A stretch of DNA of 64,000 bases, taken from assembly GCA_037138755.1 (NCBI GenBank), contig JBAXHT010000001.1:343805-407804 (forward strand). Direction: 5' to 3'. The DNA is from Armatimonadota bacterium (GTDB lineage Bacteria > Armatimonadota > Fimbriimonadia > Fimbriimonadales > Fimbriimonadaceae). Shown in pieces: positions 502 through 9,812 of the stretch. The stretch's first letter is position 1; every line of letters begins with the position of its first letter. The position numbers and the translations under genes were made by a program. The notes under the pieces are model-generated. The model saw only the letters and a program-made list of their open reading frames with translations. It was not told the origin of the DNA and searched no databases.

Positions 502-1449
502 ATGAGAAGAAGTTTAGTCACGTGTCTCGCTCTTTCGGCGGGGGTGCTACCGTCGCTCGTCATCGCTCAGCAAGACGAGAGTACATCCCCTCTTGCGCTG
601 AGACTGAGGACCTCAGTTCTCGGAGAAGTTGTCTCAACTGTTCCCAGTTGCACCTCTTTATCATCGGGAGAAGTTGGCTTACATACCGCTCTTCTGGATT
701 TGTTCCGACTCGGCAGAGATAACTTTTCTAGAAGCGTAGTCGTTCGTTTTGACAAAAGCATTCCACCGGCCGCGTTCAAAAATCAAAGGGCTTCTCGTGA
801 TAAGCCGACGTACGGAGGACCCAAAGCAAACTTGTTCAACATGCTCCCTGATCGAACAGTTGACCTATTCGTTGTGTATAGAGGAACCGAGGAAGTGAAA
901 ATTGATACTGACTCAAAGTTCCAAAAGGTTGGAGATGTGTTAGACGTCTCAACGGTGGAAATTAAGGGCGAGACCAACCTAGAAGGCGTTAAGGTAGCTC
1001 ACTATCAGTGCGCCCAAGGATTGTATTACGGGGTGACGACAATCACAGTCGGCGGAAAATCTCAGTCATTCACCGTCAACGAGGCCGAGGCAATCGACGA
1101 GTTCTCCGGCTTGAAGTTGATCGCAATCTACCAAGCGGATTCCCCCGGTCGGCTGGGTTTGCGAAGTCCTATTGCAGGCATTAGTCGCTCGAGGAATCCC
1201 GCGGCTGCGTTTCTAACCTTTGACGCCATCGCGATAATCGATCCAGCGGCAAACAACCCTTCTCTGGGCGCAGGAATCACTTATAACTTCTCTTTTGGTG
1301 CAAGGCAGGATGAGAATTTGGAAGGTAGGTACGGATTCCCTCTTTTCTTCTCAGTTACTGTGGGGATCAACGGTCTTGGCTCTAGCGGTCAAGTCGGAAG
1401 TGGACGTCCCTTCATCGCCCCGGGAATCACGTTAAGATTCCGAACCTAA
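502..1449 (+). CDS. Secreted protein of unknown function
   Basis: A 315-aa protein whose family I do not recognise. It begins with Arg-Arg and a hydrophobic signal peptide (residues 1-22, cleavage near AQ), so it should be exported. The C-terminus (residues ~260-315) is rich in Gly, Phe and aromatic-ended alternating stretches and ends in Phe-Arg-Thr, which could be a small outer-membrane beta-structure, but this is weak. The ATG at 502 is chosen over one at 433 because it starts the signal peptide and sits just after a consensus promoter. Its stop is 6 nt before the amidase start, so the two are probably co-transcribed. It lies in the putative island. Confidence 0.75.
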   Translation: MRRSLVTCLALSAGVLPSLVIAQQDESTSPLALRLRTSVLGEVVSTVPSCTSLSSGEVGLHTALLDLFRLGRDNFSRSVVVRFDKSIPPAAFKNQRASRDKPTYGGPKANLFNMLPDRTVDLFVVYRGTEEVKIDTDSKFQKVGDVLDVSTVEIKGETNLEGVKVAHYQCAQGLYYGVTTITVGGKSQSFTVNEAEAIDEFSGLKLIAIYQADSPGRLGLRSPIAGISRSRNPAAAFLTFDAIAIIDPAANNPSLGAGITYNFSFGARQDENLEGRYGFPLFFSVTVGINGLGSSGQVGSGRPFIAPGITLRFRT

Positions 1450-1455
1450 AAACTC

Positions 1456-2028
1456 ATGGCAAAAAAACTATGCATTGACCCTGGACATGGTCTTGGAAAC
1501 AAGGCCCCGACCGTATTCGACCCTGGAGCAATTTCTGAAGGCGTTTCTGAAGCAGACGTCGTCCTCGCCTATGCGCTAGCGATAAAGTTTGTTGCGCTTC
1601 AGCGAGGAATTCACGTCTTTCTGACTCGCGATGAGCAAAGTGATGTAACTCCTGTTGGATCGAGAGCCGGTGCTGCGCGGCAGGCAGGTTGCGACCTTTT
1701 CATCAGCTTGCATCTGAACTCTGCCTCTCCCTCGGCAAGCGGTACAGAAACCTACTACCGAGACGCGGCCGACAAAAAGCTTGCCGAAGTAGTTCAAACT
1801 GCCGTGCTCACGGCACTGCAGTTTAAAGACCGTAGAGTGAAAAATGAGAAGCAGTCGCAACATCCGAGATTGGCGGTACTGGATTTTTCCGGACCCGCGT
1901 GCTTAGTGGAACTAGGTTTTGTGTCGAACGCAAACAACAGGCAGAAACTCCTTCTTCGTTCGTCCAGACTTGCAGTAGCTCACGCGATTCTTGATGCTGT
2001 GATCGCCGCTTACGGGCCGCTGTCGTGA
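1456..2028 (+). CDS. N-acetylmuramoyl-L-alanine amidase (Amidase_3)
   Basis: A 190-aa zinc amidase of the AmiC/CwlV type that cleaves the bond between MurNAc and the stem peptide. It is a bare catalytic domain: DPGHG at residues 8-12 gives the first zinc His, a Glu in ISEG (~residue 28) the second ligand, SLHLNS (~84-89) the third, and VELGF (~155) the catalytic Glu. There is no signal peptide and no cell-wall-binding domain, unlike housekeeping AmiA/B/C but like many phage endolysins. It follows a secreted protein by 6 nt. A stretch just downstream encodes a membrane-like segment in another frame. Family assignment is firm; a lysis role is inference. Confidence 0.9.
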   Translation: MAKKLCIDPGHGLGNKAPTVFDPGAISEGVSEADVVLAYALAIKFVALQRGIHVFLTRDEQSDVTPVGSRAGAARQAGCDLFISLHLNSASPSASGTETYYRDAADKKLAEVVQTAVLTALQFKDRRVKNEKQSQHPRLAVLDFSGPACLVELGFVSNANNRQKLLLRSSRLAVAHAILDAVIAAYGPLS

Positions 2029-2173
2029 TGCAAGCAAGTGGTCCCTCGCCGCGATTACGGATGTGCTGCTGGTTGCCACGAATATAGCTGTGTTGACTGC
2101 TATAGCACTCGGCATTTGTCGGTCACAGCACTTTCAATCGGATACTGTGTGGAGAAATGCTCTGATGCCATGA
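2003..2173 (+). other. Start-less reading frame with a membrane-like segment
   Basis: Between the amidase and the phosphoesterase, one frame reads WSLAAITDVLLVATN followed by a further hydrophobic run (IAVLTAIALGI) and a charged tail, typical of a single transmembrane helix. It has no ATG, GTG or TTG before the helix; an ATG at 2028 overlapping the amidase stop lies one frame off. It could be a small membrane protein (holin-like) reached by frameshift, a degraded gene, or chance. The rest of the 2029-2235 gap shows nothing else. Confidence 0.25.
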
Positions 2174-2235
2174 GAATCGACGACTTGGTTCAAGTTTCAT
2201 GCTCAGTAGCCCTATCGAATATATGTAACTGACTT

Positions 2236-3564
2236 ATGATCGTCTTCCTAAGCGATATTCATTTCAGCGATGGCACTGCGGGTCCACCGAACGTGCCTCC
2301 GGGGGCGTTTAGGGGTGCCTACAAGGACTTGAAGGAAATGGCACGCGATGCAAAAGCCCAGCGACTTGAAATTGTGTTTCTCGGCGATATTTTCGACCTC
2401 ATTCGGACTGCAGCTTGGCAAGACGTCGTTGAGCCGATGAGGCCCTGGGGACAACCTGATGGAGTCTGGACCTCCGATCAGGACAATGCGGCATTGAAAC
2501 TCCTCGAGTCGATTTCTGATTTGAACAACGAAGCTCTTGAAGTCCTGGCAAGCTCACCCATCGAGAACACGATCCGAACTTTCATCCCCGGCAATCACGA
2601 TCGGATCGTCAATCTTTCGCCCAAGTTAAGAACCCAAGTATGTAAGGCCCTAGACTTAGCTCACAATCCTGCCAGAAAATTCAAGCACCACTTTGCAAAC
2701 TCACAGGCTCGCACATTTGCACGACATGGGCACGAGTTCGACGCGTTTAATTTTGAGGGGAGCAAGAGTTTCGCAAAGCGAAAGTGGACCGAAATTCCTC
2801 AGCGAGACTACGACATGACTCCAATTGGTGACCTATTAGCAGCCGAGATTTCTGCCAAACTGCCAGGCGCAGTTATGAAGAAGTTGCCCGTGGGAGAAAA
2901 GAGCTACCCCGAGTTAGCCGCCAGATTACGAGATCTCTTTGACGTTCGACCAGCCACTGCGATACTCGCATTTCTTGGCTACCAGATCCAAAATTTTAAT
3001 GACCCGGAGATCACAAAGGCAATAAACAGAGGATTCCAAGAAGTCGTTTCTGAGTTTCGGGAACTCACTTATGTTCAACGGTGGATAGAGAAAAAGGATC
3101 GCTTGTACAACCCATTCGATAAAGCCGACATATTGCAATTTATTCTGTTTTTGGGTAAACACGTTGACTTAAGCCAACTCGAAGCAGCGGCGAAAGGATA
3201 CGAGTTTTTTTCGCGCTCGCGCTCGAGTGACAATTTAGCCCAAGATGCGGCCGAAGAGTTTCGACGGCTAGACCAATCATACGAGTTCAATGATCCGCCT
3301 GTGGAGTTCGTACTGTACGGACACACACATTCACCAGAACAGAGACTTATTGCCATTCAGGGCCACGAACCAAATGTCCGCCCCCGGTTCTACCTCAATA
3401 CGGGCATGTGGCGCCCAATGCACAACCAAGGACTCCTTGACGGATTCGCGTCATGGGACACGCTGTGCTACACGGTTATCTACGAACCTGGCGAGGAATG
3501 GAAAGGTAATTTCAAATGCGATAGGCCGATGTTCGAAGTTTGGACCGGCGGGCTGGAACGATGA
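2236..3564 (+). CDS. Calcineurin-like metallophosphoesterase
   Basis: A 442-aa protein with the complete metallophosphoesterase motif set: SDIHFS (residues 6-11), GDIFD (50-54), GNHDR (~119), HGHEFD (~164) and GHTH (~361). These are the di-metal ligands of the calcineurin/Mre11 superfamily. Its specific substrate (nucleic acid, nucleotide, lipid-linked phosphate) cannot be read from sequence. The ~190-residue insert between the HGHEFD and GHTH motifs is larger than in small family members. Its stop overlaps (ATGA) the start of a ~102-aa gene, which itself ends 3 nt before the STAND NTPase, so the three look like one transcription unit and may form one defence system. That functional link is inference. 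Confidence 0.85.
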   Translation: MIVFLSDIHFSDGTAGPPNVPPGAFRGAYKDLKEMARDAKAQRLEIVFLGDIFDLIRTAAWQDVVEPMRPWGQPDGVWTSDQDNAALKLLESISDLNNEALEVLASSPIENTIRTFIPGNHDRIVNLSPKLRTQVCKALDLAHNPARKFKHHFANSQARTFARHGHEFDAFNFEGSKSFAKRKWTEIPQRDYDMTPIGDLLAAEISAKLPGAVMKKLPVGEKSYPELAARLRDLFDVRPATAILAFLGYQIQNFNDPEITKAINRGFQEVVSEFRELTYVQRWIEKKDRLYNPFDKADILQFILFLGKHVDLSQLEAAAKGYEFFSRSRSSDNLAQDAAEEFRRLDQSYEFNDPPVEFVLYGHTHSPEQRLIAIQGHEPNVRPRFYLNTGMWRPMHNQGLLDGFASWDTLCYTVIYEPGEEWKGNFKCDRPMFEVWTGGLER

Positions 3565-3869
3565 CTCGCTGGAAGTCCGCTAGCGCACATCTTCAGCTGC
3601 GAAATCTAGAGAATCAGAGTCAGCATGACACCATCCACAACGTCGCCTGCTGGCCCGACCTGGTCAACCACATAGAATTCCGGTCCTGCCGTTCCAATGA
3701 CAGTTCAATAGTCTTCATGCAGCGTTCCGAATGGCACTGGGGACAAATCCTAGGTTCCACGATCCAACCCAGGCCCCCGGTAGTGGCGGTCAGTTTGGCA
3801 ATACAATCTAAGTCCAAAAAAGTGGGCCGAGGAAATCTTCGGATCGCTTTGCAGCGTTCGTTTAGTTAG
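3561..3869 (+). CDS. Small uncharacterised protein between phosphoesterase and STAND NTPase
   Basis: A 102-aa frame starting with an ATG that overlaps the phosphoesterase stop as ATGA and ending 3 nt before the ATG of the large STAND gene. Codons are C- or G-ended in much of its length, as in real genes here, and the tight fit on both sides argues that it is translated. The product is Ser/Arg/Gln-rich, with an aromatic patch (SEWHWGQI) around residue 60. No family is recognised and there is no membrane segment or signal peptide. The alternative is a non-coding 308-bp spacer. Confidence 0.45.
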   Translation: MTRWKSASAHLQLRNLENQSQHDTIHNVACWPDLVNHIEFRSCRSNDSSIVFMQRSEWHWGQILGSTIQPRPPVVAVSLAIQSKSKKVGRGNLRIALQRSFS

Positions 3870-3872
3870 GCC

Positions 3873-6800
3873 ATGAGGGGAGAGACTTCACCACCGGGGG
3901 GACCCTCAACGATACGAGGTATCGAATACCAGATTCTCGGAAGCCTTTTTGAACTCACGGAAATGCACATTGGGACTCTTCATAAAGCTCCCGATGGAGA
4001 AGTGCTTCACGCTTCTGTGACTCTCGAACCCAGTCAGCTCGGCGGAGATTGCATCTCAAGGCGAAACGAGCACCGAAAGCACATTCAATTCAAGTCTCGA
4101 AGCTTAAGGTCGCCATGGCCCTTTAAGCTCATTCTTGAGGAGGTACTACCAAACTTGCTAAAGAGCGTAGACGTTGATCTTACAGACGACTTCGTATTCA
4201 CCACAAATGGGAGGATCGGAATGTGGGCTGAAGTCGCGGATTGGATGGCCGAATTCAAGGGGCGGCAAATACCTCAAACCATGGAAGGTTTTGGAGAAGC
4301 CTGGAATCCTTCTCGCCTGATCGAACTGCCATGCCAGATCTTGCACAAGCATAAGGGCGACGTAGTAACTGAGCAAGAGTTCTTCGGGATATTAACGAAG
4401 CAACTGATAGGAATTGAACCCGAACCCAGGTTTGAATCCTATCAAAAGCTATGGCGGCTACTCTCAGGATTGGAGTTCTGCTGGAGACAAGATGACGCTT
4501 ACTGGAAAGAGGTGGTCAGCAATAGCTTGTCCAGCCTAGTTCCCGATTCTGACAAAAGGAAGAACCTGATCAATCTGATGCTGAGGAGAGTGCAGGAACT
4601 CTCCCAGCAGGGAGACCAGATTATTACGAGTGAAGACTTCTTTGCTCAATATGAGTTAAATCTGAGCGCCTGGTTCGATTGGAAGAACATCATTACTGCA
4701 TCTCAAAGTGCGCTTGGAAGAAAACTGCGAACGAGACGCTACCTTGAAACAGCTGATGCGCGAAGACTGGCCAACCCTCATGTGGATAACGAAACAGCAG
4801 GCAACCCGAGCCCTTTCGTGATACTAAAGGGACCCAGTGGTCAAGGTAAATCATGGGAGCTAAGTTCCCGTGCCATTGCCTGGTCGAAGAAAGTGCCTGT
4901 ACTTATTGAGAAGGCCTCAGGCTCCGCTGTAAATATGAAGACAGCACTTGAGAAGAGATTTGCATCTGAGGTCTGTGGAAGGACAGAGTCACTCCCGTTT
5001 GAAGCGTATCCTGAGCTTATTGGAAGGGCACATGCAGACCACAGAGATCACTGGCTTACAATCGCCATCGATCAGGTCGAATCAGCCGATTGGATTGATG
5101 ACATCTACCACCTGTTCGACCCGATTGATGGAATCCGCATTATCGTGGCTTCCCAGGATGATCCGGCGAATCAGTTTCTCACGGGCGCGCCAGATAATGT
5201 AGCAGCCTATGAAGTTGAGAGTTTTTCTGACAAGGAACTAGCATGTCTTCTAACTGACGGTGATCTGGGCAGGATTTACGGAATGGAGCCGAAGCTTCAA
5301 GAAACCCTGCGGCTACCGCTACTCGCTAGTCTCTACAAGCAAGTCGATTCGAACGAGTTTCGTCCGGAAAGCGAGTACCAACTATATGACACCTACTTCA
5401 AACAGTTTTATAAAAAGCTCAGATCAGTCGATTCAGCGGTTGTAAGAACTGCTCTGTTTAGGGCAAGCCTGGCAGTCGCTCGCAAAGAACATTATCCTTG
5501 GACTGTTTCAGACCTCACCTCGTTTGGCCTCACGCCAACGTTGATCCAAATCTTGGTCGATTCCGGTTTCCTCGTACCAACAGATCAGGGAAAGTTTGAA
5601 ATTTGGCATGATCGAATTCTTGAATGGCTGTTGGCTGAAGCCAAGGTTGATCAGCTGTCTAGGTCCGAAATCCAGACGGAGGACTTCATAGACGCGTGGA
5701 TATTCGAATTCAATCACGCTCCACAGCATCTGAATTTTTCTGGTTATTGGCTCATGGATACTCTCTGGATCCTGACATCATCACCTGCGGCCGGTCGAAA
5801 TCTTCTAAGTGACCTCTTTGCGGAATTGGAAACCAAGATTCATAACTTCCAAGCCTTTGTTGAGAACATGCTGGGGACACTCGGGAACAAGATCTCTGCG
5901 ACTGTCCTGAACAGGATCCAAGCAACTGAGGGGAATCGTCACACTCTCTGGCGACGTAGCTACGTTGATTTCTTGGCACAATTTCCCATTCCAGAGGTTG
6001 AGCCTTTCATGCTTCATAACGCAGATAGTGTCAACTCAGAAGCAAGGGTAGCCTCTTATGCCTACTTTAAGAAGGCTTCGGATACAGCGGCAATCGAAGT
6101 TCTCTGGGCAAGATATTTGAAAGTCTTGGCCGACAGCGGTATTGGATATGACAATCGCCCCGACGAAAAGCCGGACAACTACGGTGAAAGCCGAGATATT
6201 TTTGACACATTGTATCGTTGCTTACCAACGTCAACCGACTCGATTCTGACAAAACTGGCTTCGCCACAAGACCATCCGAGGGGTGTTCCGTTGCTGCTGG
6301 CCGTTTTGCGCAACATTCCAAGTGGCAAGGAACTTTGGTCGTGCTACAAAGAGCGTTTGATCGAGTTTCTGCCCGTGGACGAACGTTGGCAGCGCGCTCG
6401 AACGGCTGGAGCATTTAAGGACTCCGAAGAATTATTGTGGCTTTGCTCTGTTCTCAAAGAAGAAGATTTTGCACTCCCTGGCGAAGCATTAAAAGCATTA
6501 GTGAAGATTGATGAGCATATGGCTATCAAATCACTGCAGCATTGCGATCCTTCGAAGGTGTATATGTCCAGGAGGGAGATCATTGAGCCTCTCTGCTATC
6601 TAAGGCATCGCGAGACAATTAATGAAATTGAGCGCCTGATGACCTCAAACCCAGATCGTCTGGTTCTTTATGCTCAGTGGTTCGTTGATACACCCAACTT
6701 ACTGAGTGTTCGAGCTTTGGAGCTTATCCTCGACGGTTTAGAGGCAAAGTTAGGTGGTGGGGATCCGAATCATGTTTATCGATGGATGCAGGTGCTTGAA

Positions 6801-8510
6801 GGAATCTCCGAGCCTGAACTACTTTCAGCAATGGCGGGTCGAAGGGGCACACTGTTTGATTCTGAACTAACAAGGATGCTTTGTTCTCGAACAAGCGTGC
6901 CTTCCCGATTCTTTGACTCTGCGCGGGCTGCAAGCTCAAATGTACTCCAGAAGGTCTCACCCCAGGGGGTTGCTAAATTAGCAAATCAGTGGCTGAGGTC
7001 AAAGGACCGATTTGTGAGAATGGCGGCCTTTGATCTGATTCCTTTTGGCTATGACTCCAAAACTCTTGAGGTCATACGTGTAAACATTTTTGATTCAAAG
7101 AATGGCACTGATGAATCGCATTCGATAGGTGGAGTTCAACACGCTTTAGCGATTGTGCAAGAGTGGGCTCTGCTCATTGAATCCTTGTTGCACAGACCTT
7201 CTGATTCAACCCAAGAAATTGCAAATTTTCGTTTGGATAAGGACCCGGTAGCGGATTCTGAACTGTCCGAGGTCCTCCAGATTTGGGAGTACGACAGCAA
7301 GAGCCGTGGAGCAATCATGGCTCTTGGTTTTGCACAACGGGCTGAGTATGCGGACGACATTGCAACGATTCTCAGGAGCCAACCCGCAGAAGATCCTCTC
7401 TTCGCGAGCTGTCTATGGAGCCTGAATATGATGCCAGTAATGTCGCCATATGCCTCCGAGATCTTGGCTGAGATTGCGGTAAACAGTGGTCATTGGCTGG
7501 CAATCCGAGCACTTGAAGTGGCCGGAGACTTGGAATCAAAACGCCGACTGGTTTCGCTGATTGAGCGCGCTTACAAAAACCCGGTGAACCTCCCCATTGG
7601 GTTGGACCGAGTTCACACAATAACTAGTCTGACCGAGCACCTGCTGTTGATTCCCGAGATCGCACCTGCAGTCCAGCGACTTTGTATCGAACTTGTAGAA
7701 TCGGGCATCGAGCGAAACGTTTTCGCGAGGGAGTTGGTCAATTCTATGGGATGGTTTGCGTTGGGAACTCCACAGTTCCAGTTCCTATTTCACAATCCGG
7801 ATGTAATCGAATATTGTCGCAGAATCGCTTTCCAGGCAGATTCGAGGGTTCGATTCGTCGGCAACAAACGGAACGCAGTCCGAGGACTATCGATAACCAA
7901 TCCGGGTCTGGCGTTCAGCGCGACGTTGCACATATTGCAAACCGAATCAGCGCATGATAGAGAACTTGCGCCATTCGATCTGCTGCGATACGACGAAGCA
8001 CGAGGAATCGAAGCTCTTTTGGCACAGTTTCTATGCGTTAGTGATGAAGTCTTCCGCACCTATATAGGCGTTGCCCTCGCTCCTCATGTAGACCGATTGG
8101 TTCTTATCCAAGATCTCAACCATGCTGATGAAGCTGTAGTCAAGCGGGCGATATTCCTACTAAGTCTTCAAGGCGAATGCGAAGAGAATCTTGCGCTTCT
8201 AACTCCACTTATACGCCACACCAGCAGAGATGTAGCGCACGATGCTCTTGTTGGTGTTTCAAAGATTAATAGAAGTATGACTGCAAAGCGCCTCGTGGAC
8301 AAGTTGGCTTTGGAACAGGATCGATTTAGGCGATACATGATGATTGATTGCCTCGCCTCAACAGTTTTTCCTGAACTCGAATATTGTGGAATGCCCGATT
8401 TGCTTGACAAGGTTATCCAGCATGAAGACTATGCAATCCAAAATGCAATGCGAGAAAAAGTCAAGAAACGACAGAAAGACCTTCAGCGCGACCTGGAAAG
8501 AAAGAGCTGA
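3873..8510 (+). CDS. STAND NTPase with N-terminal PD-(D/E)XK (Cap4/DUF4297-like) nuclease and HEAT-like C-terminus
   Basis: A 1545-aa multidomain protein. Residues ~14-130 look like a Cap4/DUF4297-type nuclease: RGIEYQ (Glu18), then E52, D59 and Q72-F-K74 as the active-site set, followed by a DDFVFTTNG strand. Residues ~300-620 form an NTPase: Walker A GPSGQGKS (320-327), a Walker B-like LTIAIDQ (~394-400), a sensor strand RIIVASQ, and a winged-helix end FEIWHDRILEWLLAEA as in NACHT proteins. The last ~900 residues are helical HEAT-like repeats. This layout matches Avs-type and related STAND defence proteins, in which repeats sense a phage protein and the N-terminal nuclease degrades DNA. It is last in a probable operon after a phosphoesterase. 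Domains are read by eye; the defence role is inferred. Confidence 0.8.
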   Translation: MRGETSPPGGPSTIRGIEYQILGSLFELTEMHIGTLHKAPDGEVLHASVTLEPSQLGGDCISRRNEHRKHIQFKSRSLRSPWPFKLILEEVLPNLLKSVDVDLTDDFVFTTNGRIGMWAEVADWMAEFKGRQIPQTMEGFGEAWNPSRLIELPCQILHKHKGDVVTEQEFFGILTKQLIGIEPEPRFESYQKLWRLLSGLEFCWRQDDAYWKEVVSNSLSSLVPDSDKRKNLINLMLRRVQELSQQGDQIITSEDFFAQYELNLSAWFDWKNIITASQSALGRKLRTRRYLETADARRLANPHVDNETAGNPSPFVILKGPSGQGKSWELSSRAIAWSKKVPVLIEKASGSAVNMKTALEKRFASEVCGRTESLPFEAYPELIGRAHADHRDHWLTIAIDQVESADWIDDIYHLFDPIDGIRIIVASQDDPANQFLTGAPDNVAAYEVESFSDKELACLLTDGDLGRIYGMEPKLQETLRLPLLASLYKQVDSNEFRPESEYQLYDTYFKQFYKKLRSVDSAVVRTALFRASLAVARKEHYPWTVSDLTSFGLTPTLIQILVDSGFLVPTDQGKFEIWHDRILEWLLAEAKVDQLSRSEIQTEDFIDAWIFEFNHAPQHLNFSGYWLMDTLWILTSSPAAGRNLLSDLFAELETKIHNFQAFVENMLGTLGNKISATVLNRIQATEGNRHTLWRRSYVDFLAQFPIPEVEPFMLHNADSVNSEARVASYAYFKKASDTAAIEVLWARYLKVLADSGIGYDNRPDEKPDNYGESRDIFDTLYRCLPTSTDSILTKLASPQDHPRGVPLLLAVLRNIPSGKELWSCYKERLIEFLPVDERWQRARTAGAFKDSEELLWLCSVLKEEDFALPGEALKALVKIDEHMAIKSLQHCDPSKVYMSRREIIEPLCYLRHRETINEIERLMTSNPDRLVLYAQWFVDTPNLLSVRALELILDGLEAKLGGGDPNHVYRWMQVLEGISEPELLSAMAGRRGTLFDSELTRMLCSRTSVPSRFFDSARAASSNVLQKVSPQGVAKLANQWLRSKDRFVRMAAFDLIPFGYDSKTLEVIRVNIFDSKNGTDESHSIGGVQHALAIVQEWALLIESLLHRPSDSTQEIANFRLDKDPVADSELSEVLQIWEYDSKSRGAIMALGFAQRAEYADDIATILRSQPAEDPLFASCLWSLNMMPVMSPYASEILAEIAVNSGHWLAIRALEVAGDLESKRRLVSLIERAYKNPVNLPIGLDRVHTITSLTEHLLLIPEIAPAVQRLCIELVESGIERNVFARELVNSMGWFALGTPQFQFLFHNPDVIEYCRRIAFQADSRVRFVGNKRNAVRGLSITNPGLAFSATLHILQTESAHDRELAPFDLLRYDEARGIEALLAQFLCVSDEVFRTYIGVALAPHVDRLVLIQDLNHADEAVVKRAIFLLSLQGECEENLALLTPLIRHTSRDVAHDALVGVSKINRSMTAKRLVDKLALEQDRFRRYMMIDCLASTVFPELEYCGMPDLLDKVIQHEDYAIQNAMREKVKKRQKDLQRDLERKS

Positions 8511-8620
8511 TCCTGAACAGCGCCACTTATCTTTGCTCGCGACCGCGTAGGGGCACTTAAAGGTATGTCCATTTGAGGAGATAAGGTGATTTTTAAGTTC
8601 ATGACACGAAGATTCTCGTA

Positions 8621-9505
8621 TTAATCATTTCGGAGAGATGGATCGCTCATCAGGCTCGATATCGCCCTCTGCGTGACCGACATCGGAACCTGAGTGTTTG
8701 CTTGTTCTCGCCTTGAGCGTTCAACAAAGTCGTCTGCTTCTGAGTCGAATAAATATAGCGTGTCGAGCTCCCCAACGTATTCGAGCGGCCAGGAAATTGG
8801 TGCATCTGGAATAACGTATATGTCCAAGGCGGGAACTTGTATCGTAAGATCGTGGCAGGAACCTATTTCACGCTCTCTTTTTGCAATCAACTCGAACGCA
8901 TGACTAGTCACAATGTAAGTCGAGATTACAGATTCGGTGTATTCATCCAACCCATATTTGACTCGGTTAGGATTAACTTCCTTTAGAACGCCGATCGCCG
9001 AGAAATGTGTGTTGAGATGGGCACGATCAGGGTCGTTTAGTTTTCCGTCCTCTGCGCGACCAAACCTGATGGCAGGTTCATCCGAGTGCAGTGTGAATCT
9101 GACCTGAGGCCATCCATACAAGACGGAGGCCACTGTCCTATGGTCAATATCGGCAGTATGAGTCCAGTCGGCTACGACGAGCATGCCTGGTACAGGGCCG
9201 CATTTCCGAAACTGCTCCGACTTCCGACGAATCTTCTTCTCGAGAAATTGATAGCCTTTGCTCGGTCCGGTTCGGGTAACGCCGCCTTCGCAGTGTTCCG
9301 CCTTGGCGAAAAGCTCATCGAGGTCTCGCTTGTCCTCCTCCGTGAATAATCTGTCCGCAATCTCCCAGTAGACGATGGGTTCCCCTGAAGATGTCCAGCA
9401 ACTGAAGTCCGGCTTTGAGCCTTCAATCGGCTTTTCATGTTCAAATTCGAGCCTCCAATACTTTAAATATTGCTCAAAGACACTTTCGGAATTCTTCATC
9501 GACAT
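8621..9505 (-). CDS. Restriction-endonuclease-fold-like protein, unknown
   Basis: A 294-aa protein convergent with the STAND gene. Its N-terminus (FEQYL at 10-14, KPDF at 31-34, then YWEIAD at 46-51) resembles the Glu...PD...E core of PD-(D/E)XK nucleases, but the expected Lys of E-x-K is Ala50, so it may be inactive or use another residue. The remaining ~230 residues match nothing I recognise. There is no signal peptide. Placement beside a nuclease-STAND gene and a tRNA scar fits a defence or mobile-island gene. The start may be the first ATG or the one two codons later. Confidence 0.65.
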   Translation of the reverse strand: MSMKNSESVFEQYLKYWRLEFEHEKPIEGSKPDFSCWTSSGEPIVYWEIADRLFTEEDKRDLDELFAKAEHCEGGVTRTGPSKGYQFLEKKIRRKSEQFRKCGPVPGMLVVADWTHTADIDHRTVASVLYGWPQVRFTLHSDEPAIRFGRAEDGKLNDPDRAHLNTHFSAIGVLKEVNPNRVKYGLDEYTESVISTYIVTSHAFELIAKREREIGSCHDLTIQVPALDIYVIPDAPISWPLEYVGELDTLYLFDSEADDFVERSRREQANTQVPMSVTQRAISSLMSDPSLRND

Positions 9506-9650
9506 TTAATCTATTCAACCTCGAAGCTGCATGCCGATGTTCTACCCCGGCTTGGGAAGCAAGAGCGTCTATGGCTTGCTAGGCCCAAACGAGGTTAGCC
9601 GTACTCTGTTAGTGTGGATGATTCAGGGATGTACAATTTTGGTCTCTCGA

Positions 9651-9683
9651 ATGACTCTCAAATGACTCTCAAATGACTCTCAA
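9651..9683 (+). repeat. Tandem 11-bp repeat, three copies
   Basis: The unit ATGACTCTCAA is repeated three times without change and is followed by ATGGGG. It lies in the 419-bp gene-free stretch 9506-9924, close to the tRNA-Leu remnant, so it may be part of an attachment or excision region. It is too short and has no spacers for a CRISPR. Confidence 0.85.
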
Positions 9684-9723
9684 ATGGGGAAGAATATGAT
9701 AGATGCTCAGGCACGTAGGTAGA

Positions 9724-9743
9724 TTCAAACGAGTGAGTTTGAA
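9724..9743 (+). repeat. Short inverted repeat next to the tRNA remnant
   Basis: TTCAAAC (9724-9730) and GTTTGAA (9737-9743) form a 7-bp stem with a 6-nt loop, ending 10 nt before the tRNA-derived segment. It could be a recombinase arm site or simply a hairpin; function unknown. Confidence 0.5.
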
Positions 9744-9753
9744 CCGCCCAAAA

Positions 9754-9812
9754 CTCCCTTGAGGTGGTAGTGCTCACAAGGCGTGAAGGTTCGAGTCCTT
9801 TCCCGCGCACCA
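9754..9812 (+). pseudogene. 3' half of a tRNA-Leu(GAG) gene (island attachment scar)
   Basis: From the anticodon stem onward this reads as a class II tRNA: anticodon loop TTGAGGT (9759-9765, anticodon GAG), 3' stem GGTAG, a Leu-type variable arm (GCT/GGC stem, 9772-9782), T-arm GAAGG-TTCGAGT-CCTTT (9785-9801), acceptor strand CCCGCGC, discriminator A and encoded CCA (9810-9812). The matching 5' acceptor GCGCGGG and D-arm are absent upstream, and the 5' anticodon stem has one mismatch. Such 3' halves mark one end of elements that integrate into tRNA genes. The intact copy and the integrase are not in this window. Confidence 0.8.

What the first reader, a model, noticed from the sequence alone, without database searches (positions are those of the whole stretch)
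2236..8510. Candidate three-gene defence operon: phosphoesterase, small protein, nuclease-STAND-HEAT protein
The calcineurin-like phosphoesterase, the ~102-aa protein (ATGA overlap) and the 1545-aa STAND protein (3-nt gap) are packed as one unit. The STAND protein reads as PD-(D/E)XK nuclease (E52, D59, Q72-x-K74), NTPase (GPSGQGKS at 320-327) and ~900 residues of HEAT-like repeats, the layout of known Avs-type phage sensors. I know of no described system with a dedicated calcineurin-like phosphoesterase in this order. The partners could modify or remove a nucleotide signal, or process DNA ends.
Basis: partly seen in the sequence, partly recalled or inferred. Interest (0 to 1): 0.8.

Follow-up and report, generated by a model that had tools for sequence, protein, structure and literature searches.

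The report
Lone Avs-like STAND gene, not operon
The window holds a real gene for a large protein built like known bacterial phage sensors (DNA-cutting domain, switch domain, HEAT repeats), but the proposed three-gene system is not supported: the neighbouring phosphoesterase belongs to a widespread family never seen next to this sensor elsewhere, and the small middle gene looks non-coding.

Summary
Coordinates, motifs and spacings in the finding are exact. The 1545-aa protein is a credible Avs-like sensor: N-terminal motif E52/D59/Q72-x-K74 and Walker A invariant in six relatives, N-terminus profile-matched to Cap4 nucleases, HEAT repeats at the C-terminus. None of Pfam, NCBIfam or PADLOC recognises the nuclease or STAND part. 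Its five relatives found elsewhere (64% to ~20% identity) lie on plasmids or beside integrase/recombinase/TIR/ArdC/NACHT genes, and none has a phosphoesterase nearby. Conversely, none of the 83 phosphoesterase loci read, and none of 40 phosphoesterase-bearing genomes, has a relative of the STAND protein. The 102-aa ORF scores as non-coding with two codon models, has no relatives in 40 related genomes, and is merely the in-frame upstream extension of the STAND frame. So the real spacing between phosphoesterase and STAND gene is 308 bp, not an overlap plus 3 nt. Best reading: a solitary, horizontally moving nuclease-STAND-HEAT gene next to an unrelated stand-alone phosphoesterase. The STAND family is a modestly interesting uncatalogued variant of a known kind; the three-gene system is not supported. 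Co-transcription is not excluded.

The parts
3873..8510 (+). 1545-aa Avs-like protein: Cap4-like PD-(D/E)XK nuclease (~1-200), STAND NTPase (~270-600; Walker A 320-327, candidate Walker B around D400, HDRxLxW motif 579-585), HEAT-like repeats (~640-1500)
4026..4094 (+). nuclease motif region E52-P53 ... G58-D59 ... Q72-x-K74
   Evidence: invariant in six relatives; matches the Cap4 motif pattern in profile comparison
4830..4853 (+). Walker A GPSGQGKS (residues 320-327)
   Evidence: invariant GxSGxGK in six relatives
2236..3564 (+). 442-aa calcineurin-like metallophosphoesterase with a ~170-residue helical insert; a widespread stand-alone family, probably not part of the STAND system
3561..3869 (+). 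102-aa ORF, most likely not a gene; in-frame extension upstream of the STAND start
1456..2028 (+). Amidase_3 (endolysin-like) gene upstream of the phosphoesterase; conserved in some genomes of the genus without phosphoesterase or STAND

Best explanation
The locus holds a self-sufficient, horizontally mobile single-gene defence protein (3873-8510) next to an unrelated stand-alone metallophosphoesterase gene. The protein probably works as Avs proteins do: the C-terminal HEAT-like repeats bind a phage product, the STAND NTPase switches and oligomerises, and the N-terminal Cap4-like nuclease then cuts DNA and stops the infection. Shown here: the domains and motifs, their conservation across distant relatives, the solitary and mobile context. 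Inferred: phage sensing, oligomerisation, DNA cleavage. The phosphoesterase is an intact enzyme family with its own wide distribution and no fixed neighbour.
For: Six relatives keep LEP...GD...QxK, GxSGxGK and HDRxLxW. N-terminal profile vs two Cap4 (PF14130) proteins scores 32.8 against at most 18.3 for 60 shuffled decoys. HEAT repeats by Pfam and PDB profile search. Relatives: G084 in an island with ArdC, a NACHT-HEAT protein, MBL and other nuclease-like genes; G559 beside a TIR protein and a phage integrase, G511 beside a serine recombinase; two on alphaproteobacterial plasmids. No phosphoesterase in any of these five loci. 0 of 83 phosphoesterase loci hold a STAND relative; 0 of 40 such genomes do. 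Patchy presence: 2 of 291 phylum genomes at full length. The Avs1-4 nuclease-effector mechanism is taken from PMC12931631.
Against: Only five other STAND loci were found, so a rare pairing could be missed; the metagenome collection was not searchable. No terminator-like or promoter-like site was found in the 308-bp gap, so co-transcription is possible. The nuclease fold was not confirmed by structure: the single-sequence model failed, pLDDT 41. Defence activity is untested.
Confidence: 0.72

Rival explanations
1. A recently formed two-gene system: the phosphoesterase was recruited in this lineage as an accessory enzyme of the STAND nuclease, for example to trim DNA ends or degrade a nucleotide signal, as MBL nucleases were recruited by Avs1, Lamassu and Hachiman.
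For: Same strand, 308-bp gap without predicted terminator, both of lower GC than the downstream genes. The sister STAND in G084 has another metallohydrolase, an MBL-fold protein, 116 bp downstream. Recurrent recruitment of MBL nucleases is documented (PMC12799240).
Against: No second instance in five STAND loci or 83 phosphoesterase loci. Same-strand adjacency of two genes is common by chance.
Confidence: 0.12
2. A conserved three-gene defence operon including the 102-aa protein.
For: ORF order and spacing.
Against: The small ORF scores as non-coding and has no relatives in 40 related genomes; no co-occurrence of the other two genes.
Confidence: 0.03
3. The phosphoesterase belongs with the upstream amidase (1456-2028), a cell-wall or phage-lysis-like hydrolase pair, and the STAND gene is separate.
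For: An Amidase_3 gene lies directly 5' of the phosphoesterase in L024 and L032 (Desulfobacterota), as in the window.
Against: Only 2 of about 80 loci, and those two look related. In three other genomes of the genus the amidase orthologue (68-77% identity) stands without a phosphoesterase.
Confidence: 0.08
4. The STAND protein is a regulatory or other conflict protein whose N-terminal domain no longer cuts DNA.
For: No curated family recognises the N-terminus; no confident structure.
Against: The catalytic-type residues are among the few invariant positions of six divergent relatives.
Confidence: 0.05

Closest known systems
Avs (AVAST) types 2-4: nuclease-STAND-repeat phage sensors
   Same: Order nuclease, STAND NTPase, long C-terminal repeats; a single large gene; mobile/defence context
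   Different: No PADLOC Avs model matches at E<=1; the C-terminal repeats here are HEAT-like; trigger and activity unknown
Cap4-type nuclease (DUF4297, PF14130) as in CBASS Cap4 and HerA-DUF4297
   Same: N-terminal motif pattern G..IRGI.YQ.L..L, LE...D, QxK...W; profile match above all decoys
   Different: Pfam PF14130 itself gives no hit even at E 10; a distinct subfamily
Avs1 / MBL-trypsin modules (PMC12799240)
   Same: A STAND gene next to a metallohydrolase gene, seen in sister genome G084 (MBL)
   Different: The window has no MBL and no fused trypsin; the phosphoesterase is not a recurring partner
Calcineurin-like phosphoesterase effector domains of bDLD/TRADD-N/STAND conflict systems (PMC8195603, PMC7159879)
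   Same: Same superfamily of enzyme in predicted conflict proteins
   Different: Those are fused or fixed effector-position domains; here it is a separate gene of a broadly distributed family without fixed partner

Membership tests
Avs (AVAST) | N-terminal effector, central STAND NTPase, C-terminal repeat sensor in one protein | tested here: met
   motifs and HEAT repeats
Avs (AVAST) | match to catalogued Avs1-5 profiles | tested here: not met
   PADLOC no hit at E<=1 for the window protein, none at E<=0.1 for two relatives
Avs (AVAST) | activation by a conserved phage protein (terminase, portal or other) | not testable with these tools
   needs infection or co-expression experiments
Avs (AVAST) | DNA cleavage after activation | not testable with these tools
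   needs biochemistry
Cap4 nuclease (PF14130) | curated profile match | tested here: not met
   no hit up to E 10 for six N-termini
Cap4 nuclease (PF14130) | shared core motif E, D, QxK in an aligned region | tested here: met
   hhalign 32.8 vs decoy maximum 18.3; invariant residues
Calcineurin-like metallophosphoesterase (PF00149) | profile match and intact metal ligands (DxH, GD, GNHD, H, GHxH) | tested here: met
   (E 6.3e-8); invariant D7, H9, D51, H121, D122, H164, H363, H365 in 53 sequences, N120 nearly invariant
Dedicated phosphoesterase-small protein-STAND defence operon | recurrent co-occurrence in independent genomes | tested here: not met
   0 of 5 STAND loci, 0 of 83 phosphoesterase loci, 0 of 40 genomes
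Dedicated phosphoesterase-small protein-STAND defence operon | the small ORF is a gene | tested here: not met
   codon scores; no relatives
Dedicated phosphoesterase-small protein-STAND defence operon | one transcript | tested here: inconclusive
   no promoter or terminator consensus in the 308-bp gap; no expression data

The most novel reading that the evidence does not exclude
A lineage-specific two-component system in which a stand-alone calcineurin-like phosphoesterase with a large helical insert cooperates with an uncatalogued Cap4-like nuclease-STAND-HEAT sensor, parallel to the MBL partner of its sister in G084: different metallohydrolases swapped in as accessory enzymes of one STAND family.
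Probability: 0.1. Interest if true: 0.6.

Novelty: new variant of a known kind. Interest (0 to 1): 0.28.

Why it matters
The result removes a proposed new defence operon, and leaves a sparse, mobile family of nuclease-STAND-HEAT proteins in Armatimonadota and Proteobacteria that current defence catalogues miss. It widens the range of Avs-like sensors and gives six sequences from which a detection profile could be built.

Tried and rejected
Viral contigs: no STAND relative; the phosphoesterase gave only three distant loci with no STAND. Phages: none. Sequence search of the PDB: only designed or ordinary HEAT proteins for the STAND profile, nothing useful for the phosphoesterase. Single-sequence AF2 model of the nuclease domain: pLDDT 41, discarded. 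Fold search of the phosphoesterase: top hits include GpdQ, SbcD/Mre11, Rv0805 and PolD but none with E below 0.001, so it supports the superfamily only, not the substrate. Rfam in 1400-9800: none. Direct or inverted repeats marking an insertion: none except a small 11-nt tandem array at 9644. tRNA insertion site: none. Synteny with sister genomes: the amidase orthologues lie in other contexts, so insertion boundaries could not be set. The 294-aa convergent gene (8621-9505): no hit in plasmids or family libraries.

Full report
What is there. The window lies in G000 contig C1:343805-407804, a 3.27-Mb genome. Its phylum is probably Armatimonadota: a same-phylum genome, G249, has a 16,132-bp contig carrying a relative of the phosphoesterase that matches in length and position WJIW01000618.1, an Armatimonadia MAG. 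That assignment is an inference.

The 1545-aa protein. Pfam sees only HEAT repeats (best stretch 1410-1494). PADLOC finds nothing at E<=1, and NCBIfam finds only a far sub-threshold HEAT-type match. A full-length relative of 64% identity exists in one of the 19 other genomes of the genus (G084). Distant relatives (about 20%) lie on plasmids of Sphingomonas parapaucimobilis and Rhizobium indigoferae and in two genomes found by a profile search in the phylum of a Proteobacteria MAG (G559, G511). In the alignment of all six, E52, D59, Q72 and K74 are invariant, as are GxSGxGK (320-326), D400 and HDRxLxW (579-585). The N-terminus compared with two Cap4-nuclease proteins (PF14130, found) scores 32.8 by hhalign, against a maximum of 18.3 for 60 column-shuffled decoys; GG..IRGI.YQIL, LE...D and QxK...W line up. 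HMMER against PF14130 itself gives nothing up to E 10, so this is a separate subfamily. Avs1-4 use nuclease effectors activated by phage proteins (PMC12931631), and the layout fits that mode of action.

Context of the STAND family. G084: an island with an ArdC antirestriction gene, a NACHT-HEAT protein, an MBL-fold gene 116 bp downstream of the STAND, and CARF/PDDEXK-like and PD-T7-5-like genes upstream. G559: a TIR protein and a phage integrase follow the STAND gene. G511: a serine recombinase follows it and a Transposase_31 gene lies upstream. Two further members are plasmid-borne. This is the context expected of a mobile defence gene. None of the five loci has a phosphoesterase relative: tblastn gave only E>0.1 noise, and a whole-genome search of G084 found none at E<=1e-5.

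The phosphoesterase. It is an intact metallophosphoesterase: the catalytic motifs are conserved in 53 relatives, and the model has pLDDT 91.5 with a helical insert around residues 170-350. Fold search places it near GpdQ, SbcD/Mre11 and Rv0805, weakly. A scan of one genome per species found 203 relatives, in Bacillaceae, Desulfobacterota, Chloroflexi, Nitrospirota, Planctomycetota and others. In the best 80 loci plus three viral contigs, no neighbouring ORF matches the STAND or the small protein. None of the nine large Walker-A ORFs near it carries the HDR motif; 67 of the 83 loci hold at least 2 kb downstream and 55 at least 5 kb, so some loci could not be read far, and in five the automatic ORF call failed. 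A profile search of 40 whole genomes carrying it found no STAND relative; the same profile does find the family in G000, G084, G559 and G511, which serves as the positive control. Its neighbours vary: GMC oxidoreductases (L017, L063, L088), caspase, Amidase_3, LCAT-type and patatin hydrolases, and once a KAP NTPase. It is a stand-alone family without a fixed partner.

The small ORF. Its codon log-odds (-0.13) is lower than every 102-codon stretch of true genes in the window and typical of wrong frames. A model trained on the locus itself gives the same picture. It has no relatives in 40 related genomes. It shares the STAND reading frame and ends at the TAG two codons before the STAND start, so an open upstream extension of one frame was read as a gene. 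Without it, the phosphoesterase stop (3564) and the STAND start (3873) are 308 bp apart.

Upstream. The amidase gene has orthologues of 68-77% in three other genomes of the genus, without phosphoesterase or STAND beside them. It is therefore not evidence for a longer operon, although two Desulfobacterota loci repeat the amidase-phosphoesterase order.

Verdict. The STAND gene is real and probably a solitary Avs-like defence gene of an uncatalogued family. Limits: few STAND relatives, no metagenome scan, no transcript data, no confident nuclease structure. Calcineurin-like phosphoesterases are already described as effector domains in predicted STAND conflict systems (PMC8195603, PMC7159879), so even a confirmed pairing would extend a known theme.

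Noticed in passing
L014:5846-7117 (-), G084: MBL-fold protein (PADLOC LmuA, PDC-M48B, RTasMBL and Avs1a-like at low score) 116 bp downstream of the sister STAND, with a trypsin-like gene 4.5 kb upstream of the STAND gene: resembles the MBL-protease modules of PMC12799240 but unfused.
   Followed up: partly
L014:11903-15277 (-), G084: Two nuclease-like genes (735 aa, CARF/PDDEXK-like; 386 aa, PD-T7-5-like), 6 bp apart and ending 25 bp before the sister STAND gene, possibly one operon with it.
   Followed up: partly
L024:7822-11296, L031:1166-5779, L032:2096-6535: In Desulfobacterota the phosphoesterase clusters with caspase and Amidase_3 genes, and in related loci (L023, L026, L028) with LCAT-type hydrolases: a recurring set of hydrolase genes of unknown function.
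   Followed up: partly
L017, L063, L088: The phosphoesterase family lies beside a ~1140-aa GMC-oxidoreductase-like protein in unrelated bacteria.
   Followed up: no
L059:5505-10429: In an Anaerolineae MAG the phosphoesterase is followed 137 bp later by a KAP-family NTPase with a weak ThsA-macro match.
   Followed up: no
window 8621-9505 (-): 294-aa protein convergent with the STAND gene, with a possible PD-(D/E)XK-like KPDF...YWEIA motif; no hit in any library or in plasmids.
   Followed up: partly
window 9644-9686: Tandem 11-nt repeat (CTCTCAAATGA) between the 294-aa gene and the ankyrin gene.
   Followed up: no
L142:1417-3204, G244: A Cap4-nuclease protein with an open frame of 1313 aa in another genome of the phylum, perhaps another nuclease-STAND protein.
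   Followed up: no
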